From Pythium myriotylum (taxonomy: Eukaryota; Oomycota; Peronosporomycetes; Pythiales; Pythiaceae): a stretch of 64,000 nucleotides of DNA. This document shows, piece after piece, positions 73 to 30,100 of the stretch (its first letter is position 1; each line of letters starts with the position of its first letter). The position numbers and the translations under genes were made by a program. A model generated the notes under the pieces. That model was not told where the DNA came from. It worked only from the letters and a program-made list of their open reading frames with translations, and ran no database searches. The stretch is taken from positions 868,001-932,000 of the forward strand of contig JALJCQ010000007.1 in assembly GCA_023091665.1 (NCBI GenBank). Direction: 5' to 3'.

Positions 73-1679
73 ATGCCGTTTGCTGGGCCTAACACTGTGG
101 TCTCCGAATCTCTACGTCGGCGGTGGAAGCCCGCATCAAATGGTCCGGAGCTCGTAGTGGTGCAAGGCGACTTGACGGAGAGCACAGCTGACGCGATCGT
201 AAATCCCGCCAACAGCCACCTATTCCATGGCGGCGGCGTCGCAGGTGCAATCGTTCGTAAAGGCGGCCGTGCGATTGAAGACGAGAGCAGGCAATGGATT
301 CAGGCAAATGATAAGCTCGCTGTGGGCCACGCCATGTCGACAACAGCCGGACGCTTGCCCAGTCGGTATGTGATCCACACGGTTGGACCACATATTCGAG
401 GCGTACGCCACGGAACGCCAACCTACGAAGAAGCCCAGCAGCTTCGTGATGCTGTGTGGAGTGCCTTGAGCGAGGCCGAACGTCTCGGACTTTCCTCGAT
501 TGCGATGCCAGGGATTTCGTCGGGGATCTTTGGTTACCCTCGCGACTTGGCGGCCAAGGAGATTGTCGGAGAGTGCGTCAACCACTGCCGTCTTGCCCAT
601 GAGAAAGGTAAAGGGGCGACAAGTTTAGAGACGATTTTGCTCATGAACATCGACAATCCAACGTACCAGAGTTTCCTCAGAGCACTCAACGAGGCCGCAG
701 CTGCAGCTCCTGGTGAGAAACTGGAGACTATTGAAGACGAAATGAAGTCTCCGAAGAACATGCAAGAAGAGCCTGTCGTGTTAGAATCGATTGGAGAGGC
801 CACGCCGTTTTTGGCGAACATTTCAGCACGATCGTGGCGCAACGTCGTGCATTTAGTCGTTTCGTGGCCTTGGGGAGCGATGATGTTAGCGACCCTCCTG
901 TGTGTTGGGGCGTACATCTTTGCGATTCACGGAGTCGGCCACGATTACGGTGGCTGGTGTGATGCGTTTTTGTGAGTTAGCATTTGCGAACGCCGCATTG
1001 TTTTACTCAAAATATAGTTCCACGAGTAGCTTCTCGTTGAATACGTCGATGTATCGTAAGGTTCGCTACTCGGGGTCTGGGATTTTCGGCAAAGTTTCCC
1101 TGTCGCCCACAATCGAGGTCCTCTTCCCTTGCCAGAAGTAACGGTGCCATGCAAGCCCAGCAACGTGCGGAGTGCCGTGACATCCCCAAGCAATTTGTGA
1201 CGCTACGCCCCGATCAAGTCCTCACCATCGAGGTGCTGGATTCGGCGGATCCTGACCACAAGAGAATGCTTTCATTTCTCCCCGCAGAACTCGCCTCTCG
1301 TGTCGTGTCAGTGCGCCGCGTGCGGTCGCTAGATCGTTACAGAGACTTCCGACTGGATCAGTATGAGCAATCGAAGCAGGGTGATGTTCGCGTGAGCGAG
1401 CCACTTTTTCACGGAACCCCACAGCGATGGCGGGCGACAGCGATCGCAACCAAAGGATTCGATATAAGGATTCGCCTGCACGGAAGAGCCTTCGGGAACG
1501 GTGTCTACGCTGCTTCTCACGTGAATACTGCAGCCGCGTACTCTAGATCCCAAGGTTCAATTCTCCAGCTTCGCGGGCTCGTCACGTCGACGACTATTGT
1601 GAATCGGGGTACCTTCGTGTTCCCGGACCCACGGGCGTTGGTTCCCGAGCTCATTGCTGATTTTGAATCCGACGAGTAG
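73..1679 (+). CDS. Macrodomain - membrane segment - PARP-like ADP-ribosyltransferase (predicted 2 exons)
   Basis: Model: exon 1 73-971, intron 972-1135 (donor GTGAGT, pyrimidine-rich acceptor ending TTGCCAG), exon 2 1136-1679; about 480 aa. Exon 1 encodes a macrodomain (residues about 27-215) with DAIVNPAN, GGGVAGAIV, YVIHTVGP and GISSGIFGYP, the ADP-ribose-binding loops of the family. The aspartate and histidine found in the MacroD loop GGGVDGxIH are Ala and Val here, so a reader rather than a strong hydrolase is possible. A hydrophobic stretch at about 260-283 looks like one membrane segment. Exon 2 encodes a PARP-type ART with FHGTP (H392) and GNGVY (Y424); the position of the catalytic Glu appears to be T459, as in mono-ARTs or inactive members. 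Without splicing, exon 1 stops at 975 and an ART-only frame starts at ATG 1149. The same module order occurs in the gene at 4872-10640. The domain calls are firm; the splice join is an inference. Confidence 0.65.
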
Positions 1680-2126
1680 ATGCCGATTGCTTGCGCTTTG
1701 AAGTGTCTGATTGACGTCTGCATTGGCAATTAAACAGCGCTTTTCGGAGCGAAGCTTTAACGTTCAACGCTGCTCGTTGACTTTATCCAAGTTGTCTGTC
1801 ATTGTGTGAACTCTATTTTCTGTCGCCCATCAGGCTGTGTGGCGAGGATCAGGAGCACATATAATGGGCAAGTCTAGATAGCAATCGCGCTCTGTTGACT
1901 TTGGTGTTAGGCTAATCTTCGCCTATCTAGCTGCCAATGATTGCGAATGAGCGAGTGAGCTGGCATTTCATCAAGAAAGCCTGTTCATACACGAGTTCAA
2001 GTCCTTGGAACATTTGCTTGACGTTGAAGTCACGCCCACTCATCTGTGGAGAATTCTTGGATTGTTTCGCAGTGTGATGCCTCCTTCATTAACAAATATC
2101 ACCTGCACTTGCAAAAACGCGATTAG
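1680..2126. other. Intergenic stretch between two ART genes
   Basis: About 450 nt with no frame resembling a macrodomain or other recognisable product. It presumably holds the 3' end of the macro-ART gene and the promoter of the next gene. No RNA gene or clear repeat is visible. Confidence 0.5.
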
Positions 2127-3266
2127 ATGTATGTGCTTCTAGTACAGCTAGTAGACGGCGGCTTCGAGGTCCTCGTTGGTGTTTCAAGTACTTGCCGTGC
2201 GTACCTGCTAGGTGGTATCAGCCTACCGATCGCGTCGACGTCGTCCTCGGAATATGACATAGCATGCGCTGCGTTATCTCGCGATGTTGGAGGGCTGTTG
2301 ACAATTAGTCAGCTCCGCCAGGTTATTCAAAGCGGGAGTCGTCAGCTAGAGGTACTAACACCATCGAGGAGAATCGTGCACGTTGTTCACGTTGATACAG
2401 ACCGTACGCGTCAGCTTCCCGATATATACACGCGTCTGAAGATAACGGGGGGTACTGAGAGACACAAGAAGCTTGTGTGGATGCCGTGGCAAAAACTCGC
2501 AGAGATGTCCGAAAGAGCATCTCGACATGAAAGTGACATTAGCGAGGAAACGATTTCAGTCGGAGGTATCTATCTTCGACCCTCAACGTCACTTCGTTGC
2601 ATTGCATCAACACATCGAGTGGAGGTCGAAGACCATGTTCTTTCCCATACACTTCGGCGAGCGCTAACGTCGGAGCTAACCCGAAGCTTGGCGGTAATAG
2701 CGAATTTAATTGACGAGAAATTTGCTTTCACCCCAAATGGCGAGTGGACGTTACGCCTCTCGAGCCCACTTCGTACTCCTCCGCCTCCGTTTGAAGACCT
2801 AGATTCGGATGATGAAGAATATGAAGAAATGTTGGAGCTTTTTGAAGAAGAGGACGTCCAGCATACTCGTATCGTTGGCATGAAACGAGTTCGAGTATCC
2901 ACTGCTCAGCTTGAGGAGTATGAACAGCTTAGATTGGATAGTGAAGAAGCTGTCAGCGAGGTTTCGCCGCTATACCATGGCACCCCAGACCGCTGGCGGG
3001 CTACGGCAATCGCTGCGGAAGGTTTTGACCCATCGATACTCTTACACGGCCGAAGACAAGGTCGCGGAATCTACACGACAACGAATATTCGATACGCGAT
3101 GTATTACGCTCGCGATCAAGGTTCCGTTCTTCGACTTCGTGGACTCCTGCCAACATCGAAAACGAAACCCAGAACGAACCTCGCCGACCATATCTATGTG
3201 TTCGAAGATCCTGCATGCTTGCTGCCGGAGCTAATCGTGGATGTCGGGGTTAAGGAAATCGGATAA
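2127..3266 (+). CDS. NUDIX-like domain plus PARP-like ADP-ribosyltransferase
   Basis: Single-exon ORF of 379 aa with an ATG start. The first ~125 residues match the NUDIX-like part of the giant gene: hydrophobic strands (YVLLVQLV, FEVLVGV), a degenerate NUDIX helix around DIACAALSRDVGG, then VHVDTDRTR and VWMPWQKL. The glutamates of the classical REXXEE box are missing, so hydrolase activity is doubtful and ADP-ribose binding is only a guess. The C-terminal ~110 residues are a PARP-type ART: VGMKRVRV strand, YHGTP (H284), GRGIY (Y316), and an isoleucine (I356) where poly-ARTs have the catalytic Glu. H-Y-I is the pattern of human PARP10-type mono-ADP-ribosyltransferases. An acidic linker rich in Asp and Glu lies between the two domains (about 228-245). 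The N-terminus starts directly at the first strand, so an upstream exon cannot be excluded. It sits head-to-tail with its paralogues. Confidence 0.75.
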   Translation: MYVLLVQLVDGGFEVLVGVSSTCRAYLLGGISLPIASTSSSEYDIACAALSRDVGGLLTISQLRQVIQSGSRQLEVLTPSRRIVHVVHVDTDRTRQLPDIYTRLKITGGTERHKKLVWMPWQKLAEMSERASRHESDISEETISVGGIYLRPSTSLRCIASTHRVEVEDHVLSHTLRRALTSELTRSLAVIANLIDEKFAFTPNGEWTLRLSSPLRTPPPPFEDLDSDDEEYEEMLELFEEEDVQHTRIVGMKRVRVSTAQLEEYEQLRLDSEEAVSEVSPLYHGTPDRWRATAIAAEGFDPSILLHGRRQGRGIYTTTNIRYAMYYARDQGSVLRLRGLLPTSKTKPRTNLADHIYVFEDPACLLPELIVDVGVKEIG

Positions 3267-3521
3267 GACTGTGCGAGGCCTGGAGCACTAGCCAAATAGC
3301 GTCAGCGCATGAGTGAATCGGAGCTAGAACCAGCTTTCCGTCTTTTAGGGATCCTTCGTTGTCGGTTTACATCCACTCAATTCAGCTTGTTCACTGACTC
3401 TTCAATCGTGCGTCATTCAGGGAAACGGGGCTCGCAGAGTTCATTTCCATTACAATCCCTGTCGCTTAACCGAGTCTTAGCGGTGACCACAAGAAATCGA
3501 AAAGGGCCTCGATCAGTTCCA

Positions 3522-4604
3522 ATGTCCGTTCGACTCGTCGACCCAAATCGCACGCCAACTAAAGCGAGTGCTGTGCTACTTGTTCGCCTTGGAGTCAGCG
3601 ACTTCGAGGTTCTCGTTGGCGCTAGACAGCTCCTCCTCGGCATCAGGCACATCGATTTGCTCGGTAATCCTTCCCTCTCGCCAACCTCTCGAACAATTGA
3701 TTATACGGGCGCATGCACGTGCCTCGACAATAACTTAGGCGGCATCCTCCAGTCGACGGGAATCCACGATGTGCTTCAAAGGGCACCACGGTCAGTCATA
3801 TTGACGCGGTCTGGTCTAACGCTGCACCTTGTTGAGTTTGATGCGAAGGACAAGCTTCTTGACGCATACGAACGCTTGAGGCTGACACCTTCGATCGAGA
3901 CGACGCATGAGCTCATCGATTGGGTACCATGGCTTGCGCTTGTGGTCGCCGCAAGAGGAGGGCGACCAACAGAGACCACGACACGCCTCCTAGTTGAAAA
4001 GTTTGAGAGTTCACGGACAACGTATCGCGTGTCAGAGGTCCTTGAGCAAGTCGTGATCCATCACGCTGAGGAAATTGAAGGCCACATGGAACATCTTGTC
4101 GTGGCACGTATGACTTCAGTAGAAGCAACCCCACATAGAGTTGTGAAGCTGCCACCACCGATCGATATTGTGCAACCCCACGAGGCTGATTACAAGTATA
4201 TGTGCAAGTTGCTGCCTAAACGTTTCGTATCACGGGTGATAACGATACGCCGGGTGCGTGTGCCATCAAGGGTTGAAGAGTTTGAAGAGTTCGAGCGATC
4301 GTCTTCTGAGAAGTTGCAACTTGTCGAGCCCGTATTTCATGGAACCCCAGAGCGATGGCGAGCGACAGCGATCGCGATGGAAGGGTTCAACCTGCAGGTC
4401 AGTTTGCACGGAAGAAGCAACGGTCCGGGAGTCTACACAGGCGCTGATACGACGCATTCAGCTACCTATGCTGGCACTGACGGCTCCATACTGCTTCTTC
4501 GAGGACTTCGATCGAGGGCTGACTTTAAAGGACTCTCGTACTACGTGTTTCGGGACCCAAAGGCACTGTTGCCGTTGCTGATTGCAGACTTCGGGTTCGA
4601 TTGA
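3522..4604 (+). CDS. NUDIX-like domain plus PARP-like ADP-ribosyltransferase (paralogue)
   Basis: The frame is open from an ATG at 3309 (431 aa). I chose the in-frame ATG at 3522 (360 aa) because the first 71 residues of the longer form have no family resemblance and would leave only 42 nt after the previous gene. A NUDIX-like domain covers about residues 8-150: AVLLVRLG, FEVLVGA, a very degenerate helix ending NNLGGIL, and IDWVPWLAL. The ART covers about 220-360: strand ITIRRVRV, FHGTP (H273), GPGVY (Y305), and Tyr 340 where the catalytic Glu would be, followed by VFRDPKALLP. Loss of both the NUDIX box and the ART glutamate suggests a mono-ART at most, or a binding or decoy paralogue. It is 3' of a close paralogue and 5' of the giant fusion gene, which repeats its whole layout. 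Confidence 0.72.
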   Translation: MSVRLVDPNRTPTKASAVLLVRLGVSDFEVLVGARQLLLGIRHIDLLGNPSLSPTSRTIDYTGACTCLDNNLGGILQSTGIHDVLQRAPRSVILTRSGLTLHLVEFDAKDKLLDAYERLRLTPSIETTHELIDWVPWLALVVAARGGRPTETTTRLLVEKFESSRTTYRVSEVLEQVVIHHAEEIEGHMEHLVVARMTSVEATPHRVVKLPPPIDIVQPHEADYKYMCKLLPKRFVSRVITIRRVRVPSRVEEFEEFERSSSEKLQLVEPVFHGTPERWRATAIAMEGFNLQVSLHGRSNGPGVYTGADTTHSATYAGTDGSILLLRGLRSRADFKGLSYYVFRDPKALLPLLIADFGFD

Positions 4605-4871: not shown

Positions 4872-7800
4872 ATGGAGGGGGCAACTGGCATCCGATCATT
4901 GGTGCCTGGTTGGGCACCACACGACGCTGTCCGAAAGCGAGAAATGGCACCGACTCTACGCTGGAAGCCGTCTGGAGGTGGCCCTGAAATAGTGGTGATG
5001 CAAGGGGATATAACGACTTGCGAAGCCGATGCTATCGTGAATCCAGCAAATTGCTATCTAGTTCATGCAGGCGGCGTTGCAGCTGCGATAGTAAAACGTG
5101 GGGGTCGAGTTATTCAGGAGCAGTGTGCAATCTGGCTTGAATCAAACGAGAGGCTTCCTGTTGGTAAGGCAATGTCGACAACTGGGGGCGATTTGCCTTG
5201 TCGACATGTGATTCACACGGTTGGGCCAACCGTTGAAAACGGCAATCCAACTTCACAACATGCTGGTGACCTACGGAACGCTATTTGGAGCGCGCTCTGC
5301 GAGGCGTCTACACTACTGCTCGAGTCAATTGCAATCCCGAGTGTGTCCTCAGGGTTCTTTGGATATACACCTGCTTTGGCCGCCAGAGAGATTGTACAGG
5401 AATGCATCCGGTTCTCACATCACCAATCAAATTCGATGACCGAACACGCTCCAACGCTGCAAACAATCATTTTGGTGAATATTGATGATTCGACGTGTCG
5501 AAGCTTTGCTCGTGCACTCGAAGAGGCTGCTGCCTCAGTTAACAGAAAGGCGGAGATCATGCAATACGACAAGGTTGAGAGTATACGTTCGAGCGATGAA
5601 CTTATGTTTTCGAGAACGGGCACATATAGCGCACTACTACTGGTTCGGGGAGGTGAGCACGATTTTGAGGCTCTGCTTGGAGTGGAGTTCCAGCTGTATC
5701 ACGGCAAGCAGCTGAGTATGCTTGGCAGTGGTATGGTGTCGACATCAAGAGATATTGACAGCGCTGAAGCCATTGCCCACAGCTTTTGTCAAGATATTGG
5801 TGGAGTATTATCGGTGAGTGAGCTCATTAAAACCATGCAGAGCCCTGGCAGACAAGTTGTTCTCAAGTCTACGGGATGCATTCTGCGCATTGTGCACTTC
5901 GATACTGACCGTACACGCAAGCTGTCCGAGACTTACGATCGAGCAAACTTCGGTTTGAGGACAAACGGCAAATTTGACCACATAGTTTGGATCCCCTGGC
6001 GAGCTCTTCTCAATGCCGTGATACCGACGCCTCTTGGTTTGAAAGCACTTGAAGCAAGGCCTTACCTTGCACCAGATATTCGTACATTTTATGGTTTGTA
6101 CAAACTCTCTGATCTCGCGCATCAACTTATCTCCACGCTTGGAGAAACGATTACATATCATATCGAAGATCTTGTGACCATGCGAATGGTCTGCAGAGAA
6201 CTGGGGCGCATAGACATACTTCGGGGTGCCGACAATGATCATCTACTTCTACAAACACTCGGGACAGACTGGAAGCTTCGCCTCACAAGCCCACCATCGC
6301 CTCCTGAGCCTCCGATTGTGAACCTTAAACCAGCGGAGAAAGACTACCAGGCAATAGTTTCATCACTTCCTGGTCATGTCTCGGCGCGAGTAGTGAGCGT
6401 GCGACGGGTGCGGGCATTTCCTCGTCTTGGCAACTACCTATTGCACAAGAGGTCAGTATCCGGAAACATCCAGGAGACTGAGCCATTGTTCCATGGAACT
6501 CCACATCGTTGGCGAGCAACTGCGATCGCTCTTAACGGTTTTGACGGAAGTATTCGACTGAATGGACGTTCTCATGGAGATGGAATTTACACAGCGTCAG
6601 ACTTGGTCACAACGATGCCTTTTTTCGGCTCCGCAGGGTCGCTCCTCCGACTTCGCGGCTTAGTGACGAAGGATAGTCCGAAAACAAACGAAAACACAAT
6701 CATACGTGGGTGTGTGCACGTGTTCCCTGATCCTAAGGCTCTGTTGCCAGTGGTGATTGTCGATTACGCTGGAGAAGATGAGCTTGATCAGGTCGAGCTT
6801 AAGCGTCACGATGCCGAACAGGACTACCAGACCCTTATTGACCAACGTCTGGATATGGAGACGAAGATGAAGTTCGAGGAAGATAAGTTCAAGCGGGATA
6901 CTGGGTTGCGGTTGAAAGCAGCTGCCGAAGTGTACTATAGTCGTCTCAAGATATTGAGAGACTGGAAACGTGACGAGCATTATGAAGCTCGAATAACACG
7001 ACGATTCCAGGTGCCGGCTTATATATCAACCAGCCGCAAGTTCTTTCTTGAGCGGCGGCACTTCAAATCTGGGCTTCCGATGTACGAGGTCAAGAACGAG
7101 CTGGTTGAGATTCTTAAGACCAAATCCGTGTTGATCATAGTTGCAGAGACCGGATCAGGTAAAAGCACCCAGCTTCCACAAGTACTGCTTGACGACGTTC
7201 TACAGGACAATGAGGTCCGACGTATAGCCATTCTTGAGCCTCGACGAGTCAATGCAATTTCATTGTGCAAGCGAGTCTCGGAAGAACGAGGGCTGTTGCC
7301 GGGTCAAGAAGTTGGGTATACGATCGGCCGCGGGGAATCAAATGTCCAGCCAGCCATAACTCGCCTGGAGTATATGACCCATGGACTATTCGTTCAGCTT
7401 GCCCGAGACTACGACCACCTAATTACAAGCTACTGCGCAGTGATTGTTGACGAGGCTCATGAACGCTCACTTGATGTCGATCTTTCTTTGGCGCTGTTGC
7501 AGAGAACACTCAGACGATGTGAATACGGGGTCGAGCGTTCACAACCTTTCCGCGTCATTGTGACCAGTGCAACCATCGGTGACGAGGCTGAAAAGATACA
7601 GAACTACTTGGACCCAACAAGAGCACATTCTGCGGTGCTCCAAGTGCGAGGGCGAACATTTCCTGTTCACGTTCAGTATCGAAGTGATGTTCAAATCGAT
7701 CGCCGGGCCCTGGGATCGGCAGAAACGGGAAAAGTGCTGTCTTCAGCTGCAATTCAGGCAGCAGTCGAACTGCTTCGGACCACGATAGACGGCAACATTC

Positions 7801-10640
7801 TTATCTTTCTACCTGGGGAGGGAAGCATCAATGATGCAATGGGGGTGGCGAAGAACGAGATCGCACAATCAGCATCGGTTGATGTGCTCGATTCACTCGA
7901 CTCTTCTTCATCAGCGTTTTACTTTCGAGTATCGACATTGGAGCCGACAGACGGTATTGCCACGGATCCGCAAAATCCAGATACAGCAAAAGTAGTTCAA
8001 CCCCCGACGAAGGGTCCCATTAGTCGTCGGCGAGTTAGGACAACCTGTGTCCTTGGATTTCACAGCAAAGTCTCGCGTGCAGAACGCGACCGTGTAATGT
8101 ACCCCCGTAGGTCTGATTGGCGACTCGTGGTGTTCACGACGAACATTGCTGAGACTGGTGTGACGATCCCAAACGTAAGGTATGTCATTGATACTGGACT
8201 TGAGCGTCGAGTTCGATGGAATCCCGATCTAGATATGAACGAGATGGTGACAGAGCCGATATCCGTATCATCCATGATACAACGCTCTGGTCGCGCAGGT
8301 CGTACAGCCTCAGGAATTTGCATTCGTCTTTTCGCAGAAGAATGTGTTGGCGAGCTCATTCGACCAAACGTCGTTCCTGCCGTGCAGAACTCAATGATAT
8401 ACAAGGCCGTCCTTCTCAACAAGCAACTTGAGGCTCAAGGCGAGTCAAGGCTCCAATTACTAGACCCAATAGCTCCTGAAGTTTTCAGTCGAGCGGAGCG
8501 GCGGCTCGTTGAGCTTGGAGCACTCAATGCTGATCATGGCCAACTAACAAGAGAAGGCGAGGCACTGCTTCGTATTGGTATTGACTTGCGCCTCGGCAGA
8601 TTCTTGATTGCTTGTGCGCGCTTCGGTTGTCTGTCATCTGGTGTCAAGTTGGCATCCATCCTTGTCACCTCAGACGCACCTGAGAGACTGCTGTCTAACC
8701 GAAAAAAGCAGTTCCGTGGAGATCGGCTCCGGCCAGCGATTGACTCAAGCGGAGACCACCTTACCCTCCTGAACATCGTCGAAGCATATGAAATTGCCGA
8801 GCAGCAAGGAGCGGGAATTAAGTGGTGTACTGAGCTCGGCTTGGATTTTGAGGTGTTCGTTGGCGCAGGAGCATCGCGCGAGTACCTTTTGAAAGTGCTC
8901 GACGCACTTCACTTTCCACTGCTGGACGATGAAGCTACGATGACTCGTGCCGGAGGAAACCAGACGTGTATTCGTCGCGCCCTTTGCGCGGCGTTTTACG
9001 ATCAGCTTGCGCGTCCGCGCTTAGCGGGAACTATAAAGAACGGGCTTGTTCGCGTTCTGGATAGATCGACCGCCAAGAGCATGCACGAGAATGCCGAAGG
9101 ATTCGTTAGACGGACTCGAAGCGGGGCTGTGGGCGATGTGTTTACACGTGCCAACTCCGGGAAGGCAACGAACATTAGTGGACAGTCAGATCCCGAAGTT
9201 GAAGTGATAGTCAAAGCTGGAAACTACTCGACTTTATGGCTACCGGAGGTTGCGCAAGGCCTGCAAAGCCCAAACACCCTGGTTGTTATTGGATCCCTCC
9301 TTCTCACAGACGGATCTATCCGTGGAGAGCCGACAGTGCAACTACTTACATGTGTGAGCCCAGAAGACATTCAGGCTGGCGCATCCGATTGGTGTCGGAT
9401 TGTTGACTTCAATCAATTACTGGAGACTTCGATGCGAGAAACACTCCACTTCGAGCTAGTTCGTGGAATGGAGCAATCTTTCTTGGCGAACCGAGGCGCG
9501 TGGATCCGGCAACTTGCGCGGAAATATCATTCAACAGTGGCAACCATATCCCAGGGAAGACTGGAGGTTTCTTGTCCACGTCGAAGTCGCGCACGTGTCG
9601 AACACTACTTGGGCAAGCAGGTGTGCGCTGTGGCCCCAGAGAGTGTGGTCCTGCAGTTGCCGAATCACGTCAATATGGGCAAGCTGATCGGGAAGAGTGG
9701 TGCTCAACTCAACATGCTCAAGCAGGACCTCGAGTGCCTTCTCTTAAGCGAGAGCCTCGGTGCAGGGTATGAGCACGTGCGCCGACCGACCTTATCGGTT
9801 GATAGCACTCGGAAGACTGTCACAGTGACGTTGCAAGGTGCAAGCAAACCACTCATGGGAATAATAGTCGGTCGCGTCCAGTCTGCAATTGCCGAGTTTC
9901 TCGGCAGCGACATAGTACCCCTCGTCTTGGATGCTTCTGGTGAGCGAGGTCAGCAAATGCAACGATGCCCGCGCCTTGCCCTGCTGCACAACCGAGTTCC
10001 ACCATCAGGCTGGAACACTCGTGATGACGTGATGCTGCAGCTGGCTCACACGCTTGTGTGGCAGTGCAATGTCAGCATCCATGGAGGCTTCTTACGTGAC
10101 TGGGTCGTCAGAGGGGAGGAGGCAAATGATATCGATGTCCAAGTATCACCACCTACTACGTGTGACTCGATCGAGCAAGGTCTTCGTGAGTTCTTCAAAG
10201 ATAACGCCGGGGCGCGAACGAAGTGCCTTCACATTTCAAACAAAGGGAGTAAGGGTGCAGCGATGACGTTGACTATAAACGGACGTGGGTTTGCCCCCAT
10301 CGATATCGATCTTGTCGATCGCGAATGTATTCGTGATGTGATTCCACCTCCGGGTGTTGATTGCGACGCCGGTAACTTTCTCCTCAACCGGCTCCATTTC
10401 TGCAAAAAAGTTCCCAGCGCTGGTGGCTCCCTATGTGCTGCACTGGAAAATGCATTGGCAAAGCGATTCGAATTCTATTATCCTCTAGAGGATGGAGAGC
10501 ACCAAGCCATGGCTGTGCGACGTCTAAAGCGATACCTTGGGCGAGGATGGACCTGCGTGTCGTGTGTGCCTTCCGCTGTCAAAGCGAGGCTTTCAGAGTA
10601 CGAACGCGCAATGCTTCGCCCAAACGTATCCGACGAGTGA
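4872..10640 (+). CDS. Giant macro / NUDIX-like / ART / DEAH RNA helicase / KH / nucleotidyltransferase fusion
   Basis: The open frame begins at a GTG (4842); ATGs are at 4872 (used; 1,922 aa) and 4944. Domains in order: macrodomain 37-221 (DAIVNPAN, AGGVAAAIV, SVSSGFFGYT); NUDIX-like 249-383; PARP-type ART 487-635 with H541, Y573 and Val615 in place of the Glu; charged coiled coil about 643-710; DEAH-box helicase with motif I AETGSGKST at 758, DEAH at 860, SAT at 899, motif V TNIAETGVTIPN and motif VI QRSGRAGRT at 1137; an HA2-like region about 1197-1265; a KH domain with GKLIGKSG at 1603; and a nucleotidyltransferase head with GGFLRD at 1738, DID at 1753 and a second PIDID at 1810-1814, as in CCA-adding/poly(A) polymerases. 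No intron is seen in 5.8 kb. The whole points to RNA recognition, unwinding and 3'-end or nucleotidyl modification coupled to ADP-ribose signalling. Antiviral or RNA quality-control roles are inference only. I know of no described protein with this full order. Confidence 0.85.
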   Translation: MEGATGIRSLVPGWAPHDAVRKREMAPTLRWKPSGGGPEIVVMQGDITTCEADAIVNPANCYLVHAGGVAAAIVKRGGRVIQEQCAIWLESNERLPVGKAMSTTGGDLPCRHVIHTVGPTVENGNPTSQHAGDLRNAIWSALCEASTLLLESIAIPSVSSGFFGYTPALAAREIVQECIRFSHHQSNSMTEHAPTLQTIILVNIDDSTCRSFARALEEAAASVNRKAEIMQYDKVESIRSSDELMFSRTGTYSALLLVRGGEHDFEALLGVEFQLYHGKQLSMLGSGMVSTSRDIDSAEAIAHSFCQDIGGVLSVSELIKTMQSPGRQVVLKSTGCILRIVHFDTDRTRKLSETYDRANFGLRTNGKFDHIVWIPWRALLNAVIPTPLGLKALEARPYLAPDIRTFYGLYKLSDLAHQLISTLGETITYHIEDLVTMRMVCRELGRIDILRGADNDHLLLQTLGTDWKLRLTSPPSPPEPPIVNLKPAEKDYQAIVSSLPGHVSARVVSVRRVRAFPRLGNYLLHKRSVSGNIQETEPLFHGTPHRWRATAIALNGFDGSIRLNGRSHGDGIYTASDLVTTMPFFGSAGSLLRLRGLVTKDSPKTNENTIIRGCVHVFPDPKALLPVVIVDYAGEDELDQVELKRHDAEQDYQTLIDQRLDMETKMKFEEDKFKRDTGLRLKAAAEVYYSRLKILRDWKRDEHYEARITRRFQVPAYISTSRKFFLERRHFKSGLPMYEVKNELVEILKTKSVLIIVAETGSGKSTQLPQVLLDDVLQDNEVRRIAILEPRRVNAISLCKRVSEERGLLPGQEVGYTIGRGESNVQPAITRLEYMTHGLFVQLARDYDHLITSYCAVIVDEAHERSLDVDLSLALLQRTLRRCEYGVERSQPFRVIVTSATIGDEAEKIQNYLDPTRAHSAVLQVRGRTFPVHVQYRSDVQIDRRALGSAETGKVLSSAAIQAAVELLRTTIDGNILIFLPGEGSINDAMGVAKNEIAQSASVDVLDSLDSSSSAFYFRVSTLEPTDGIATDPQNPDTAKVVQPPTKGPISRRRVRTTCVLGFHSKVSRAERDRVMYPRRSDWRLVVFTTNIAETGVTIPNVRYVIDTGLERRVRWNPDLDMNEMVTEPISVSSMIQRSGRAGRTASGICIRLFAEECVGELIRPNVVPAVQNSMIYKAVLLNKQLEAQGESRLQLLDPIAPEVFSRAERRLVELGALNADHGQLTREGEALLRIGIDLRLGRFLIACARFGCLSSGVKLASILVTSDAPERLLSNRKKQFRGDRLRPAIDSSGDHLTLLNIVEAYEIAEQQGAGIKWCTELGLDFEVFVGAGASREYLLKVLDALHFPLLDDEATMTRAGGNQTCIRRALCAAFYDQLARPRLAGTIKNGLVRVLDRSTAKSMHENAEGFVRRTRSGAVGDVFTRANSGKATNISGQSDPEVEVIVKAGNYSTLWLPEVAQGLQSPNTLVVIGSLLLTDGSIRGEPTVQLLTCVSPEDIQAGASDWCRIVDFNQLLETSMRETLHFELVRGMEQSFLANRGAWIRQLARKYHSTVATISQGRLEVSCPRRSRARVEHYLGKQVCAVAPESVVLQLPNHVNMGKLIGKSGAQLNMLKQDLECLLLSESLGAGYEHVRRPTLSVDSTRKTVTVTLQGASKPLMGIIVGRVQSAIAEFLGSDIVPLVLDASGERGQQMQRCPRLALLHNRVPPSGWNTRDDVMLQLAHTLVWQCNVSIHGGFLRDWVVRGEEANDIDVQVSPPTTCDSIEQGLREFFKDNAGARTKCLHISNKGSKGAAMTLTINGRGFAPIDIDLVDRECIRDVIPPPGVDCDAGNFLLNRLHFCKKVPSAGGSLCAALENALAKRFEFYYPLEDGEHQAMAVRRLKRYLGRGWTCVSCVPSAVKARLSEYERAMLRPNVSDE

Positions 10641-10743: not shown

Positions 10744-13266
10744 CTACGGTTCTGGAAGTGCGCATCTGCAGGTTGGACACTCCATCTTTACTTGCATCCA
10801 GCCCTGTAAGCACTCGCGATGGAAGATATGGTCACACGGTGCGATCATGTAGTCTCGCGCCGCAACATCAAGCTCTACCATGCAGATGACACAGTCGATT
10901 GTTCCTTCGTCATTCGTGGAGGTGTGTAGCAAAGACAGCTCTTGGGCATTGATTCGCCGCTCGTAGTTGTACTTAACAGGGAGAAATCTTGAGGGAATAA
11001 AGAATCGAGGTCCGTACTTCTGCTGCAGCACAAGAACCCCAACTTGCAATCCCATCCAGCAGATGAGCAACAAGCAAAAATTGGGTTTGGTCTTGCTATC
11101 ATACTAAGAAGAAAACGATCATGTCACCATACCACAGCGCTACAGCGAGAAAATACTAAGCGTACCATTGGGAACGCTGTGAGGAAGTTGTCTGCGTATC
11201 CGTAGAAATAAAGTGGAAGGAACATGCGCAACGCGCTAATACCGTACAAGTAGCCAGTATCAAATGGGTTCCGCACCTCACTGAAATGAAAGAAAAATTA
11301 GAAAAGAAACCAGACTTCGGGGCTTGACCTGCTACATCGTACCGATGCACATTGTGAACAATTTGAGGTACCCAGAAAGAGTAGCTCACGAAGACGAGGA
11401 AAGGCAGGTAGTTCTATACAAGAGCCCAAGGAGGTTAGGGAGTCGTGGACAAGTCCGAACTAGTATGATCTTACCGAGAAATTGTAGAAAATGGCGAGGC
11501 CGGCAAGCAGAGACAGATAGAATCGAGAGTACAGGGTGGTGAGCTCGCGACGTAATGTTAGCCACCCGTCAGCAAATCCTTGGGGACGCCGCGCCTTCCA
11601 TATAATCAACAAATAGCGCATCTCGAATACTGAGAAGATGATCAACTTCACGAATGCGACAGAAGCAAACGCGGTAAAAACATTCTGGAATTCAGCAGAG
11701 AACGTCTCCAATACGGTAAGCCTGTGTTTTCATGTTGCCAGTAAATATCAGTCTCTTACCTGGGCAACAATTCCGACCGTGAGATGACCAAGACAGAGGT
11801 ATGAATCCAAGATAGCTTGCTGGCCGATAGTGAGCAGGGATACTTTTGCTGCGGTTGCCTGAGTGTTCGTGATCTGGAGTTGACGGAGCAAAAAATAGAT
11901 CTCGGTCATCGAGATGAACGTCATGAGGATTGCGTAACCGGAGGCCTTCGCGAAGAACACGTTGAGGTTTTCTTCCTGAAAAGTCGTATCGATCTTCAAG
12001 TATAATCCACAGTTCACACTTGCCAAGGATCCGACTAGTCGAGATTTCATAGGCTGCAAACTTCCATCGTATGGTTGGGGTTCGCGAGAAGCAGGCTCTG
12101 TGGAGTTCGTGGGATTGTCAAGGGAGAGCTCTATGATACTCACACACTGATCGCTGAATGAATCGCTGTTGCGAAAGCGCGAGACGTAAGTGTATCTCGG
12201 TGGGGAAATGTCAATAGCATCGTAGTCGTCGCGATCCTCTACCAGTGGGACACCGTCGATTGCACCTAGGTTCATTCCATTCCCCAGGCGCAGGTGCGGT
12301 TGAAATTCGTCCTCATCGGTGGGAGAAGTAGTAGGAACCTCGCTGGGATTGGTTGAGTTCTTGTTCGATCTCGGCTTGCGGTACAAAAGCTGAACAGTCG
12401 AGTCGGGACTGTTGCCGAACAATGTCAGCTTACCCATCTTTCTCAGAAAGACGCCTTGTACAGGTAGGATCGTCGCCGCAAGTGATGCCTGTTCTTCGTA
12501 GATTACGAGCTGACCTTTCACGTAAGCAACATCCTCACTCAGCTCCTTCGCGGCCGGTGGCTTCATCTTCAGCAACAGCCAGGTATGACCGTTCTCCACA
12601 GGTTGCAGGTACTGCTGAACTTGAATGTCACGGTCGACTTTGAGATAGGGACTGCAATGACACCCTGAGTATCTCATCATCGCACTTTTTCCTAGAGCAA
12701 GACAACTCACATGATGTCCTTGTAGGCCGGTTTCTCTTTCTCGTAATCCTCCGAAGACAGCGATGACCAGGTGCCTACATCATCGACGCTTATTCACTAC
12801 GCCCTCACCAGCAAAAAAACGCTTCTCGAATGGCCTACGTACCCGAGAAAATGCCCGATGTGTTCCGTGAGATCGCCTTCTCGTCATATGTGGGCAGTCC
12901 GTGGAGCACGTGCTCAAAGTTTCCAACCCGCTCGATGCGCTGGGACTCGTTGAACACACTGTGTTGGGTCCCATATCGATTGACCGCGCCATTGGGCCCC
13001 GCACCGCCGGTGCGTGCGTTCGCCTGACGCTGGCCGTCTCCTGCGCGATTGTCAAAGAACAAGACCATGAAGCAGAGGAAAATGGCCATGCTCAGGAGCT
13101 GCATGCGCTGGCGCTGGAACTGCTGGTGGCGCCACTCGGCGTCCATGGCGCCCATGTTGATCGCGAACGCCGCGTCGGCGACGCCGTCGCTGTTGCCGTT
13201 GTTGCCCGGAGGCCCGTGCCGCGGACTCGCGCGGACGATCATCACGACGCGGTTCTCGCGATCCAT
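10744..13266 (-). CDS. TUL1/Dsc-type multi-pass transmembrane RING E3 ubiquitin ligase
   Basis: Seven exons read on the minus strand: 13266-12843, 12774-12711, 12651-11760, 11705-11475, 11413-11343, 11280-11166, 11103-10744; predicted 718 aa. Introns are 46-68 nt with good GT-AG motifs. The product has an N-terminal membrane segment (MQLLSMAIFLCFMVLFF), a long luminal region containing SGTWSSLSSEDY and PYLKVD typical of the family, several C-terminal membrane helices (including VKLIIFSVFEMRYLL and SYSFWVPQIVHN), and a C-terminal C3H2C3 RING finger (CVIC ... CDHIFHREC ... CPTC). The family includes yeast Tul1, fission yeast Dsc1 and plant FLY1/2, which ubiquitinate membrane proteins in the Golgi/endosomal system. 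The start ATG at 13266 opens a divergent arrangement with the kinesin gene. The acceptor at 11706 is the least certain junction; it was chosen because it alone keeps the frame. Confidence 0.8.
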
Positions 13267-26673: not shown

Positions 26674-27124
26674 GCGACATAATAGTAGCAGCCTAGGAAC
26701 CAGCAACTGTGCAAGTCAACGAGGATTGTGCAAGTCAAGTGTCGAGACTCGTCTTGTGTAGTGTCTAATACCCAAACTTAACAACACATCCATCCCAAAC
26801 GTAACAGTGTATCCAGACCGTGCCATCTGTTTTGGGTAATGTGCTCATTAGTTTGGGCCATTTGATTGGTCGATAACGCGCGCCGCGCCAATGGTCGGAG
26901 GAAACGCTGGAAGAAAGCCACGCGAACGTTGGTCTCCGCCGTCCAACGTTGAACTTCCAGCGCCAACAAGACGCCAACGCCAACGCGGTGAACCCATTCT
27001 ATTTTGGGCCGATCCCAAAACAATGAAACGGAACAACGTCCGTGCGTCTACGGCGTCTAACCGATAGACGCCAACGGCCACTCGCAAACTTTCCCGCCGC
27101 GTGCCAGATCCGCCGTCGACCACC
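26674..27124. other. Intergenic: upstream region of the ankyrin-PARP gene
   Basis: About 450 nt without a credible gene. It has a direct repeat of TGTGCAAGTCAA at about 26707 and 26727, repeated GCCAACG words at 26930-27075, and CCATTCTATTTT at 26994-27005, an initiator-like sequence about 120 nt before the PARP ATG. Confidence 0.45.
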
Positions 27125-30100
27125 ATGGCCGCGACCATGGGCAAGCGCAAGTGGACCGAGATGGACTGGGAGGTCGTGATGGAGGCGCAGTCCTTCGTGG
27201 CCGTCTACGCCGAGGGCGCCGCGGACGACGAGCCCCCGGCCGAGTCGAAACCCAAGGGGAAGAAGGCGTCTAACCCCAAGTCTAAGAAGAAGTCTAACTC
27301 CAAGTCTAAACCCAAGCCGGCGCGCAGGAGTGGGCGCAAGACTAAAGCCGTCCAAGAGGAGAAAGACGAGGAGGAGAAAGAGGAGGAGAAAGAGGTGGAG
27401 GAGGCGAATGGCGGCGCGGAGAAGGAGGCGTTCTGGCTGGCCGAGCTGCGCGACGACGTGACGGAGGACATGCTGGCGACGGACGTGGGCGTGCACGTGC
27501 GCTGGCTCAACAAGCGCGGCGGCAGCGTCTACGAGTACGCGTTCGACGACGTCGTGGAGGTGCAGACGATCCTCTGCCACGTCTACATGGTCGAGCGCGC
27601 GGACGGCACGCTCGAGCTCACGGCCAAGTCGCTCGCGCGCGTGGAGCGCTGCGTGCGCCGCACGAGAGGCGAGGACATCGCAGACGAGATGGACGAAGAC
27701 GACGAGAAGCCTCCACCGTCGCGAAGGAAGAAGCGAGCGGTTCCAGCGGACGTCGAGGACGACGGCGAGGGCGGCACGAAGCGGCGCCGGGGAGGAGGAG
27801 GAGGAGGAGGACGCGGCGGTGGAGGAGGAGCCAAGGCCAAGAAGCTCTCGAAGCGAGAGGAAGCCATGCACATCCCGCCCAAGTACGCCACGGTCTCGCT
27901 GAGCAAGTACGAAGACACCGAGATCCGCGGCTCGCACGCGTTCCAGGCGCCGACAGAGGACATGCTGGCCAACGCCAAGGAAGTGATTCGCGCCGTCGTG
28001 ACGAAGAACACCAAGCTGCTCAAGAAGCTCACCGGCGACAAGAACGTCTACAAGAGCATCCACTCGTTCGCCGTCCCGCACGGCGCAGACGTCAAGAAGA
28101 CCGCGCTTCAGTATGCGGTCGAGGCCGATGATCTCGCGTCTGCGGCGCTATTACTCAAGGCGCGCAAGCTCGAGAAGAAGCAGCTTGCCAAAAAGCCCGA
28201 GACGTCCCTGCCATCCCACTCGACGGGCAAGCACACCAGCTCATACAGCGATTACAACCGCCGCGCGATCAACGCGAGTCGGGGCGGGCGTGAGGGAAAC
28301 AACGCGCTTGTCGAGGATGGCGACACCGTCTCGACGGATGAGGAGGACAAGTTCCTCTGGGGATACAATAAGACGAGCGTCAAAATGCTCACGTTGTTCT
28401 ACCCGACCGGCGAGTGGAGTAGTGGCTACAGCGTCGCGTACAATGTCGCCAGAGCCTGTCGCGCAGGCAACTACAAGCTCGCGAACAAAGTCATCGAGAC
28501 GCTGCAGCGCAACGGTGGCTGGGGCTTCAATGAGCTCCATGCCAAAGTTTTGTCCGACAGCGACGAAGATCTTCCAGTGTTTCGCTCCGTGTCAGCGATC
28601 AAGCAGGCCTACCAGACCAAAATCCGTCCGATCCACCTTGCTGCAATCAACCCAAACACCAAGTATCTAGAGGCGATGTGGGACAGCGCCGGTGACGAAT
28701 GGAGCTCGGCAAAGGATGACCTCGCGTTTGAACCGATCCATTTTGCTGCGGCGTGCGAGTCGACGGGGCCGTTGGCTTTCCTGTTGGAGCGAAGGTGCAA
28801 CATGTTCGCACGCACGAAGCGCCGACAGACGCCTATCATGCGTGCAATTGCGACAGGCCGCGAAGACAATGCGATTTTCCTCATGGATAAAGCTTCGGAA
28901 GAGAGTCAGGAGGTACTGAGCAAGATCGTGTCCGAGCGTGGTCCGGGCTCGTTCCAACCTGTTCATTATGCTGCTCGATACAACTGCCACAAGGTGCTCG
29001 AGCACTTGCTCAAGAATGGAGCTGACATCAACAGTGTGTGCGAAGGAAAGCTCACCCCGTTGTGTTTGGCGGCCCGTGAAGGCCACTATGACTGTGTCAA
29101 AGTGCTGTTGGACCACGGCGCGAAAATCAACCAGGGTGACAAGCTCAAAAAGACTCCACTGATTCTCGCTGTCAAGAATGGCCGCACTCGTATCGCGGCG
29201 CTACTCATCAACGGCGGCGCAAACGTGAACGCTTTCGATACGTCTGAGAACAGTGTGGTTCACTACGCTGCAAGCTACGGGTGGAAATCTTGTTTGGAGT
29301 TGCTTGCTGACGCCGGAGCCGACTTCTGGGCGAAAAACTCGTGGGGATTTGTACCTCTTACCTGTGCTTTGCTTAAGCAGCGCCTCCTTTGCTCAGAATA
29401 CATCCTTGAGCACGATCCAAACCAACAATTTCTGGACTTCCGAGACCGTCAAGGCTGCACGATGTTATTCCTCCAGTGTAGCCACTCGACGAATGCCTCT
29501 CAGATTAAGTATCTACTGGACAAGGGACTGAACCCAAACATTCCCAACTCCGACAACGTCTACCCACTGCAAGTGCTCTTGCAGCGCGCTAAACCTTCGA
29601 AAACCACCGACGGAGATGAGGACGAAGCTGATAATTTCTACGTCGGTGCCATCCGCTTGTTGTTGGAGCACAAGGCTGCAGCACACTACGATATCGAGGT
29701 CAAGAAGCCCATTCCGGGGTTGAAAGAAGAGCCAGTAGCTGTGCTGCAGCCGCTACAAATTGCCATTCAGCGTGATCTCAAGGATATTTTTCTCCTTTTG
29801 CTCAATGAATACGACGCTGATCCGTCCAAACAAGGGTCGGATGGTCTGAATGCGTGGATGACTGCAATCTGGAAGGGCCGTGCTGGCGAGTTCTTTTTAG
29901 AGGAGCTGCTCAAGAATCATACGCAGAAGAACAAGAACAAAAAAATTGACTTATCGGCACGAGACATCATGGGGGATAACGTTTTCCATTGCGTTGGAGC
30001 CGCGAGAATGGACAAGCTTATCGCTCCGTCCTTGATTAGAGAGCTGATCAAGAAATGCCAGGACCCAGCGTTCCTCATGAACCAGAAGAACGATGAAGGT

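What the first reader, a model, noticed from the sequence alone, without database searches (positions are those of the whole stretch)
4872..10640. Single protein joining ADP-ribosyltransferase, DEAH RNA helicase, KH domain and poly(A)/CCA-type nucleotidyltransferase
All key motifs are intact in the helicase (GKST, DEAH, SAT, QRSGRAGR), KH (GKLIGKSG) and nucleotidyltransferase (GGFLRD, DID, PIDID) parts. Macro+KH+ART recalls antiviral PARP14, but adding an RNA helicase and a nucleotidyltransferase is, to my knowledge, undescribed. Possible targets are RNA ends or phosphorylated nucleic-acid termini.
Basis: partly seen in the sequence, partly recalled or inferred. Interest (0 to 1): 0.9.

Follow-up and report, generated by a model that had tools for sequence, protein, structure and literature searches.

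The report
ADP-ribose and RNA-tailing helicase fusion
A single giant protein, found in water moulds and some other single-celled eukaryotes, joins an ADP-ribose-attaching enzyme, ADP-ribose-removing domains, an RNA-unwinding motor, RNA-binding domains and what looks like an RNA-end-extending enzyme, which hints at an undescribed way of marking RNA molecules.

Summary
Window 4872-10640 (+) is one uninterrupted 1,922-codon frame: macrodomain, NUDIX-like domain, PARP-type ADP-ribosyltransferase, coiled coil, DEAH RNA helicase, two KH-like repeats, and a C-terminal nucleotidyltransferase head folded like CCA-adding enzymes.
It is not a gene-model chimera. The chain recurs in Phytophthora nicotianae, Pythium oligandrum, an unclassified protist and several unnamed database sequences. 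Helicases of 13 members form one group (100/100); PARP, helicase, KH and nucleotidyltransferase parts diverge in step. The PARP signature is present in all 15 members covering it, the nucleotidyltransferase acids in all 10 reaching it. Viral and prokaryotic pattern scans confirmed no relative of these two domains; seven paper searches (open-licence library) listed no description.
Most likely mechanism (inferred): a single-chain RNA-surveillance or antiviral enzyme that unwinds RNA, tails free 3' ends and mono-ADP-ribosylates phosphorylated RNA ends or bound proteins, with macro/NUDIX erasers. No activity is tested; the nucleotidyltransferase has no sequence-profile match. Partial macro/NUDIX/PARP copies lie in tandem upstream.

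The parts
4872..10640 (+). single open frame of the fusion protein, 1,922 aa (P0001)
   Evidence: 45% identity over 96-98% to two other oomycete proteins
4947..5540 (+). macrodomain (res 26-223), ADP-ribose binding/removing fold
5619..6281 (+). NUDIX-like domain (about res 250-470), catalytic box degraded in this copy
   Evidence: homologous columns hold the NUDIX box in relatives; Pfam NUDIX in 9 of 12 members scanned; motif tables
6309..6773 (+). PARP-type ADP-ribosyltransferase (res 480-634), His541 and Tyr573, hydrophobic third place
   Evidence: family profile to PARP12 1.8e-10; signature in 15 of 16 members or fragments, the 16th lacking the region
6783..7031 (+). long helix / coiled coil linking PARP and helicase
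   Evidence: helix 638-682 in the model; the end at 7031 is set by the start of the helicase
7053..9071 (+). DEAH/RHA RNA helicase core with winged-helix/HA2 region (res 728-1400)
   Evidence: best PDB match 6i3o 4.1e-72, Prp43 sequences 8e-72 to 1e-70; SF2 motifs; own group 100/100
9192..9401 (+). OB-like region of the helicase C-terminus (res 1441-1510), divergent, tentative
   Evidence: OB_NTP_bind in 1 of 12 members; strands of low confidence in the model
9429..9635 (+). first KH-like repeat, no GxxG loop
   Evidence: beta-alpha-alpha-beta-beta-alpha order in the model; no Pfam match
9636..9911 (+). second KH repeat with GKSG loop
   Evidence: KH_1 in 4 of 12 members, best 1.3e-4; this copy under the cut-offs
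9969..10616 (+). CCA-adding/PAP-like nucleotidyltransferase head and neck; Asp1753, Asp1755, Asp1813
73..975 (+). upstream partial copy: macrodomain ORF (frame open to window start)
   Evidence: Pfam Macro 5.4e-34
1149..1679 (+). upstream partial copy: PARP only
   Evidence: Pfam PARP 9.3e-8; 44% to the 3309-4604 protein
2127..3266 (+). upstream partial copy: degraded NUDIX + PARP
3309..4604 (+). upstream partial copy: degraded NUDIX + PARP

Best explanation
A single-chain RNA-surveillance (probably antiviral or transposon-directed) enzyme. Its KH repeats and DEAH motor seize and unwind single-stranded RNA. The C-terminal nucleotidyltransferase adds nucleotides to free 3'-OH ends. The PARP-type domain (His541, Tyr573, hydrophobic third position, hence mono-ADP-ribosylating) puts ADP-ribose on phosphorylated RNA ends or on proteins of the bound RNP. 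The macrodomain, and in most relatives the NUDIX domain, remove or trim ADP-ribose, so that writer and eraser travel with the RNA engine. It would work like TRAMP (helicase + poly(A) polymerase + RNA binder; recalled) with an ADP-ribose switch. Shown: domain content, conserved catalytic residues, co-inheritance. Inferred: every activity, RNA as ADP-ribose target, defence role.
For: Single frame and full-length conservation. Helicase matches in 12 of 12 members scanned, one group of 13. PARP signature in 15 of 16 members or fragments, the 16th (P0004) lacking the region. Nucleotidyltransferase motifs in 10 of 10 that reach it; fold of CCA-adding enzymes; the Foldseek list also holds FAM46 and trypanosome terminal uridylyl transferase 4. 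KH fold. Pairwise identities of PARP, helicase, OB-KH and nucleotidyltransferase parts in 10 full-length members correlate (r 0.74-0.88; 0 to 3 of 5000 label shuffles as high). At least one eraser that looks intact (macro, or the NUDIX RExxEE helix) in 13 of 14 members that cover the region. Human PARP10, PARP11 and PARP15 modify phosphorylated RNA ends; for PARP10 this was reversed by macrodomain hydrolases and NUDT16 (PMC6582358, passages). PARP14 has KH and macrodomains; its KH fragments bind RNA and a catalytic fragment modifies phosphorylated ends (PMC10450202, passages). Tandem partial copies upstream fit a fast-turning-over conflict gene.
Against: No activity is shown. PARP targets could be proteins only. 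The nucleotidyltransferase lacks body/tail domains and has no sequence-level match to a known family, so its product is uncertain. P0036 keeps the PARP but has neither macro nor an intact NUDIX box, against a strict writer-plus-eraser logic. The NUDIX box is dead-looking in this very copy. KH GxxG is degenerate in P0006, P0039 and P0042. No defence-gene context was seen: of six other ORFs scanned with Pfam one is an ankyrin-WGR-PARP, four have other domains (RING, DUF2921, PhoD, PH), one has none.
Confidence: 0.4

Rival explanations
1. Protein-directed PARP on an RNA machine: the PARP domain ADP-ribosylates the protein itself or RNP/viral proteins, as most human mono-ARTs do; macro and NUDIX reset it; helicase and nucleotidyltransferase act on RNA independently.
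For: Closest PDB relatives by profile are PARP12, tankyrases, PARP14, PARP10, largely known for protein targets (recalled).
Against: The helicase, KH and nucleotidyltransferase parts are of RNA-handling kinds and would deliver RNA to the chain; PARP10/11/15 and PARP14 also modify RNA ends in vitro.
Confidence: 0.3
2. RNA (tRNA) repair enzyme: ART clears or caps phosphorylated ends left by RNases, NUDIX/macro process the ADP-ribose product, and the CCA-like nucleotidyltransferase rebuilds the 3' end.
For: CCA-like head; a KptA ART-Nudix fusion in Bodo saltans virus is discussed under RNA repair (PMC9503650, passage).
Against: The ART profile finds PARPs, not KptA/Tpt1 (39 of 39 PDB rows at E <= 0.01). 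No CCA body/tail domains follow the head. No ligase or phosphoesterase domain among the Pfam matches listed for 12 members.
Confidence: 0.12
3. Signal maker: the nucleotidyltransferase, like OAS or cGAS (also Pol-beta-fold enzymes; recalled), makes a nucleotide messenger or nucleotidylates a protein after the helicase senses foreign RNA; PARP is the effector.
For: RHA-type helicase + PARP resembles sensor-effector layouts (recalled); the nucleotidyltransferase's substrate is open.
Against: The best fold matches of that part are CCA-adding or tRNA-processing enzymes (ranks 1-17 of the 50 VIA-align rows, 19 rows in all).
Confidence: 0.1
4. Chimeric or read-through gene model: two or more neighbouring genes read as one.
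For: In this copy only macro and helicase pass Pfam's cut-offs; one relative (P0003) does carry a probable mis-joined nucleoside hydrolase.
Against: No in-frame stop over 5.8 kb; PARP, helicase and nucleotidyltransferase in the same order in ten full-length members; parts diverge in step.
Confidence: 0.03

Closest known systems
PARP14/PARP9/PARP10 (clade 3 macro- and KH-containing PARPs)
   Same: Macrodomains (PARP9, PARP14), KH domains and a PARP domain in one chain; macro best matched by PARP9/PARP14 macrodomain 1 (tied in Z with macroH2A); RNA-end ADP-ribosylation known for PARP10 and a PARP14 fragment (PMC6582358, PMC10450202, passages)
   Different: PARP in the middle of the chain, with NUDIX, DEAH helicase and nucleotidyltransferase added; no WWE or RRM among the Pfam matches listed for 12 members; found in protists
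TRAMP complex (Mtr4-Trf4-Air; recalled)
   Same: SF2 RNA helicase + template-independent nucleotidyltransferase + RNA-binding part acting on RNA 3' ends
   Different: There separate subunits, Ski2-like helicase, no ADP-ribose chemistry; here one chain, DEAH helicase and a CCA-like head
CCA-adding enzyme / bacterial poly(A) polymerase I (class II nucleotidyltransferases; class recalled)
   Different: No body/tail, no sequence-profile match; DCDxxN in place of the RRDxxxN motif (recalled motif)
DEAH/RHA helicases (Prp43, DHX36, HrpA)
   Same: Helicase motifs, HA2 region in 7 of 12
   Different: Own group, 100/100, within the chain described here
KptA ART-Nudix fusion of Bodo saltans virus (PMC9503650, passage)
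   Same: ART joined to NUDIX
   Different: KptA, not PARP; no helicase or nucleotidyltransferase mentioned in the passage

Membership tests
PARP superfamily (H-Y-x ADP-ribosyltransferases) | sequence-profile match to PARP catalytic domain | tested here: met
   profile of 5 members and 3 upstream ORFs: 1.8e-10 to PARP12, 39 of 39 PDB rows of the PARP family; Pfam PARP in 7 of 12 members at E <= 0.1; this copy alone is under Pfam's cut-off
PARP superfamily (H-Y-x ADP-ribosyltransferases) | catalytic His and Tyr | tested here: met
   15 of 16 members or fragments, the 16th lacking the region; 3 of 3 upstream PARP copies
PARP superfamily (H-Y-x ADP-ribosyltransferases) | third residue Glu (poly-ADP-ribosylating PARPs) | tested here: not met
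   no Glu at the aligned place, mostly V; alignment to PARP1 by eye and from memory, so mono-ART-like
NUDIX hydrolases | Pfam NUDIX match | tested here: met
   9 of 12 family members at E <= 0.1, best 2.1e-7; not this copy
NUDIX hydrolases | NUDIX box in this copy | tested here: not met
   strict box in 8 of 14, RExxEE helix in 11 of 14 members that cover it; both absent in P0001, P0036, P0039
Macrodomains | profile and fold | tested here: met
Macrodomains | ADP-ribosyl hydrolase activity | not testable with these tools
   -
DEAH/RHA helicases | motifs I, II (DEAH), III, V, VI | tested here: met
   PDB 4.1e-72
DEAH/RHA helicases | OB_NTP_bind domain | tested here: inconclusive
   Pfam in 1 of 12 members; low-confidence strands in the model
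KH domains | beta-alpha-alpha-beta-beta-alpha fold with GxxG | tested here: met
   second repeat; the first lacks GxxG. By profile this copy is under the cut-offs (KH_KhpA-B 0.0038, KH_1 0.06); KH_1 in 4 of 12 members; KH proteins in the Foldseek list are weak (0.0085 and above)
Class II tRNA nucleotidyltransferase/poly(A) polymerase | head fold | tested here: met
Class II tRNA nucleotidyltransferase/poly(A) polymerase | GGxxRD, DxD and third carboxylate | tested here: met
   10 of 10 members that reach it (GGxxRD and DxD; third Asp by eye)
Class II tRNA nucleotidyltransferase/poly(A) polymerase | Pfam/PDB sequence-profile match | tested here: not met
   none
Class II tRNA nucleotidyltransferase/poly(A) polymerase | body and tail domains | tested here: not met
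   the aligned stretch (model 261-474) runs to within 8 residues of the end of the chain
Class II tRNA nucleotidyltransferase/poly(A) polymerase | nucleotide addition to RNA | not testable with these tools
   -

The most novel reading that the evidence does not exclude
A scattered, ancient eukaryotic enzyme class in which reversible ADP-ribosylation of RNA ends and 3' nucleotide addition are alternative fates chosen by one helicase-driven machine: 3'-OH ends are tailed, phosphorylated ends are ADP-ribose-capped, and macro/NUDIX reset the choice. It would be a defence and RNA-quality system of protists coupling NAD+ to RNA tailing.
Probability: 0.25. Interest if true: 0.92.

Novelty: new variant of a known kind. 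Interest (0 to 1): 0.7.

Why it matters
RNA ADP-ribosylation is known mainly from work with isolated enzymes (my reading of the abstracts and passages); natural systems in which RNA is clearly the target are few (recalled). Here evolution has tied a PARP and ADP-ribose erasers to a dedicated RNA helicase, KH domains and an RNA-tailing-type nucleotidyltransferase in one chain, and kept them together in oomycetes and other, distant eukaryotes. If the activities are as predicted, it gives a natural, testable system for what RNA ADP-ribosylation is for, and a candidate RNA-defence pathway in protists.

Tried and rejected
Chimeric gene model: rejected. KptA/Tpt1 identity of the ART: not supported. 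Viral or prokaryotic source: PARP and nucleotidyltransferase profiles gave no confirmed relative in viral contigs (35 and 32 pattern hits, 0 confirmed) or genome contigs (1 and 35 pattern hits, 0 confirmed). These scans rest on one or two short peptide patterns each, so a distant source is not excluded. Free-standing NUDIX-PARP proteins elsewhere: the third protein search returned 3 proteins, on contigs of 1.2 to 4.8 kb; by eye two run into the start of the helicase and one has macro + NUDIX + PARP up to a broken end, so I take them as fragments of the same family. All three protein searches scored only the roughly 8,000 candidates with most shared words.

In the fold comparison 30 of 50 rows are HIV reverse transcriptase and one HMG-CoA reductase; they cover only the second KH repeat (70-91 residues) and were read as a shared common arrangement. 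OAS and cGAS are not in the rows shown, which does not exclude them; NF90-NF45 is (E 0.028). Foldseek TM-scores for the nucleotidyltransferase are low (0.22 of the whole model for FAM46A). A possible N-terminal helical domain in some relatives found no significant Pfam match. The last roughly 185 residues of P0003 match nucleoside hydrolases (Pfam 4.7e-30); since they replace conserved C-terminal residues I treat them as a likely gene-model join. The fold search of the N-terminal model was filled with macrodomains, so the NUDIX and PARP folds were not tested by structure. A 2015 review of ADP-ribosyltransferases that I recall is not held, so a mention there cannot be excluded. Rows dropped before counts: P0004 (no PARP region, no C-terminus) is absent from alignments A2, A4, A6 and A7; P0040 from A7.

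Full report
OBSERVATION. The window belongs to a 58.7 Mb, 55-contig genome (C7:868001-932000), a eukaryote and, by its closest relatives, an oomycete (inference). Pfam sees the macrodomain and helicase above cut-off. This copy's PARP and KH fall below curated cut-offs and its nucleotidyltransferase is unmatched, so relatives were needed.

FAMILY. A whole-length protein search (34 proteins at E <= 0.001, most of them plain helicases or PARP14s) returned proteins of Phytophthora nicotianae (P0002, 45% identity over 98%) and Pythium oligandrum (P0003, 45% over 96%), a shorter piece (P0004) and two remote ones (P0005, 33% over 89%; P0006, 29% over 78%). A profile search started without the macrodomain (27 proteins) added seven more members (P0036-P0042), two of them from 'Eukaryota sp.' TZLM3-RCL and TZLM1-RC, unclassified eukaryotes in NCBI taxonomy (I recall these strains as skoliomonad metamonads, which no call confirms). 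A third search with the NUDIX-PARP part returned three fragments (P0061-P0063). Altogether 16 members or fragments. All three searches scored only about 8,000 candidates, so this is a lower bound.

ANATOMY. Order in the most complete members: [macro] - NUDIX - PARP - coiled coil - DEAH helicase - OB-like - KH-like - KH - nucleotidyltransferase. Pfam at E <= 0.1 across 12 members, P0004 left out: Helicase_C 12, DEAD 12, NUDIX 9, PARP 7, HA2_N 7, Macro 4, KH_1 4. P0004 and P0061 also carry a macro. Motifs: the PARP signature HGTPxxWRATAI and GRxxGxGxY in 15 of 16, the exception (P0004) lacking the region; the third catalytic place is not Glu but mostly V, with F, I or W in single members (aligned to PARP1 by eye), as in mono-ADP-ribosylating PARPs (rule recalled). 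The nucleotidyltransferase GGxxRD, DxD, third Asp and D-C/A-D/N-xxN are in 10 of 10 members that reach that far; the other six end earlier or are fragments. The NUDIX RExxEE helix is in 11 of 14 members that cover it and the strict box in 8 of 14; both are lost in P0001, P0036 and P0039. The three NUDIX-bearing frames in this window all have a degraded box. At least one eraser that looks intact (macro or RExxEE) is present in 13 of 14; P0036 has neither. KH GxxG is degenerate in P0006, P0039 and P0042.

ONE ORIGIN. In a maximum-likelihood tree of 39 DEAH helicase domains taken from the search hits the 13 family members form one side of a branch (100/100), the oomycete sequences together; the outgroup sample is what the searches returned and several outgroup branches are long. 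Pairwise identities of the PARP, helicase, OB-KH and nucleotidyltransferase parts in 10 full-length members correlate at r 0.74-0.88 (0 to 3 of 5000 label shuffles as high). The simplest reading is a single fusion inherited as a unit, with macro gained or lost and NUDIX decaying in places. Lateral transfer is possible; the tree cannot tell. Pattern scans confirmed no relative of the PARP or nucleotidyltransferase in viral or bacterial/archaeal contigs.

SURROUNDINGS. Upstream lie four ORFs that repeat the N-terminal module: macro (73-975), PARP (1149-1679), NUDIX-PARP (2127-3266) and NUDIX-PARP (3309-4604). Searching the genome with the last of these gave 6 matches at E <= 0.001, all at C7:869,224-874,770, that is in this cluster (five candidates were scored, so a lower bound). 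Other PARP kinds do occur elsewhere in the genome (8 matches to the Pfam PARP model in all, one of them in this cluster). The 10 kb before the window show no further copy among the ORFs read by eye. A full-length paralogue search did not complete.

MECHANISM. What is shown: one polypeptide, conserved catalytic residues, joint inheritance. What is inferred: DEAH motor and KH domains load RNA; a CCA/PAP-like head extends 3'-OH ends; a mono-ART PARP modifies phosphorylated RNA ends or bound proteins; macro/NUDIX erase. Support by analogy: PARP10, PARP11, PARP15 and TRPT1 modify phosphorylated RNA ends, and for PARP10 and TRPT1 this was reversed by PARG, TARG1, MACROD1/2, ARH3 and NUDT16 (PMC6582358, passages); a PARP14 catalytic fragment does so too while its KH fragments bind RNA (PMC10450202, passages). 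A helicase joined to a tailing enzyme and an RNA binder recalls TRAMP (recalled). The CCA-type body and tail are missing, so general tailing with KH-based recognition is likelier than CCA repair. Tandem partial copies with PARP residues kept suggest turnover typical of conflict genes; a defence role is a guess on that and on the PARP14 parallel.

LITERATURE. Seven full-text searches combining PARP, NUDIX, DEAH/helicase, KH, macro, nucleotidyltransferase and oomycete/protist/Phytophthora terms listed no paper describing this chain, judging by titles, starts of abstracts and the passages read. The held oomycete PARP paper reports two WGR-REG-CAT PARPs and one PARG in P. infestans (PMC11766942, passages). 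The main texts of two PARP evolution surveys have no occurrence of 'helicase' or 'nudix' (PMC4245714; PMC2964712; passages). The library holds open-licence papers only.

VERDICT. Real, conserved, and to my searches undescribed: a new variant of macro/KH PARPs in which an RNA helicase and a CCA/PAP-like nucleotidyltransferase are built in. The parts are known kinds; the coupling is new. Biochemistry is entirely untested, which caps the mechanism at 0.4.

Noticed in passing
window 27101-35356 (+): A second giant PARP ORF of 2,751 aa: ankyrin repeats, WGR, PARP regulatory and PARP catalytic domains; a Clade 1 PARP with ankyrin repeats is reported for Saprolegnia diclina (PMC4245714, passage).
   Followed up: partly
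G000:C7:971410-971946: A further strong PARP match in a 2,853-codon open frame about 39 kb beyond the window.
   Followed up: no
window 73-4604 (+): Tandem partial copies (macro, PARP, two NUDIX-PARP) of the N-terminal module; PARP catalytic residues kept in 3 of 3, NUDIX boxes degraded in 2 of 2 NUDIX-bearing copies. The macro ORF ends in a hydrophobic stretch that could be a membrane helix (by eye).
   Followed up: partly
P0003 (Pythium oligandrum): Database protein ends in a nucleoside hydrolase match (Pfam 4.7e-30) in place of the conserved C-terminus; probably a gene-model join.
   Followed up: partly
P0037, residues 1-60: One member has an extra KH-like stretch with an IGKNG loop at its N-terminus (KH_2 0.00039, just under the cut-off), besides the C-terminal KH.
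   Followed up: no
window 10744-12710 (-): RING finger and DUF2921 transmembrane E3-ligase matches in two ORFs just downstream, opposite strand; likely one gene.
   Followed up: no
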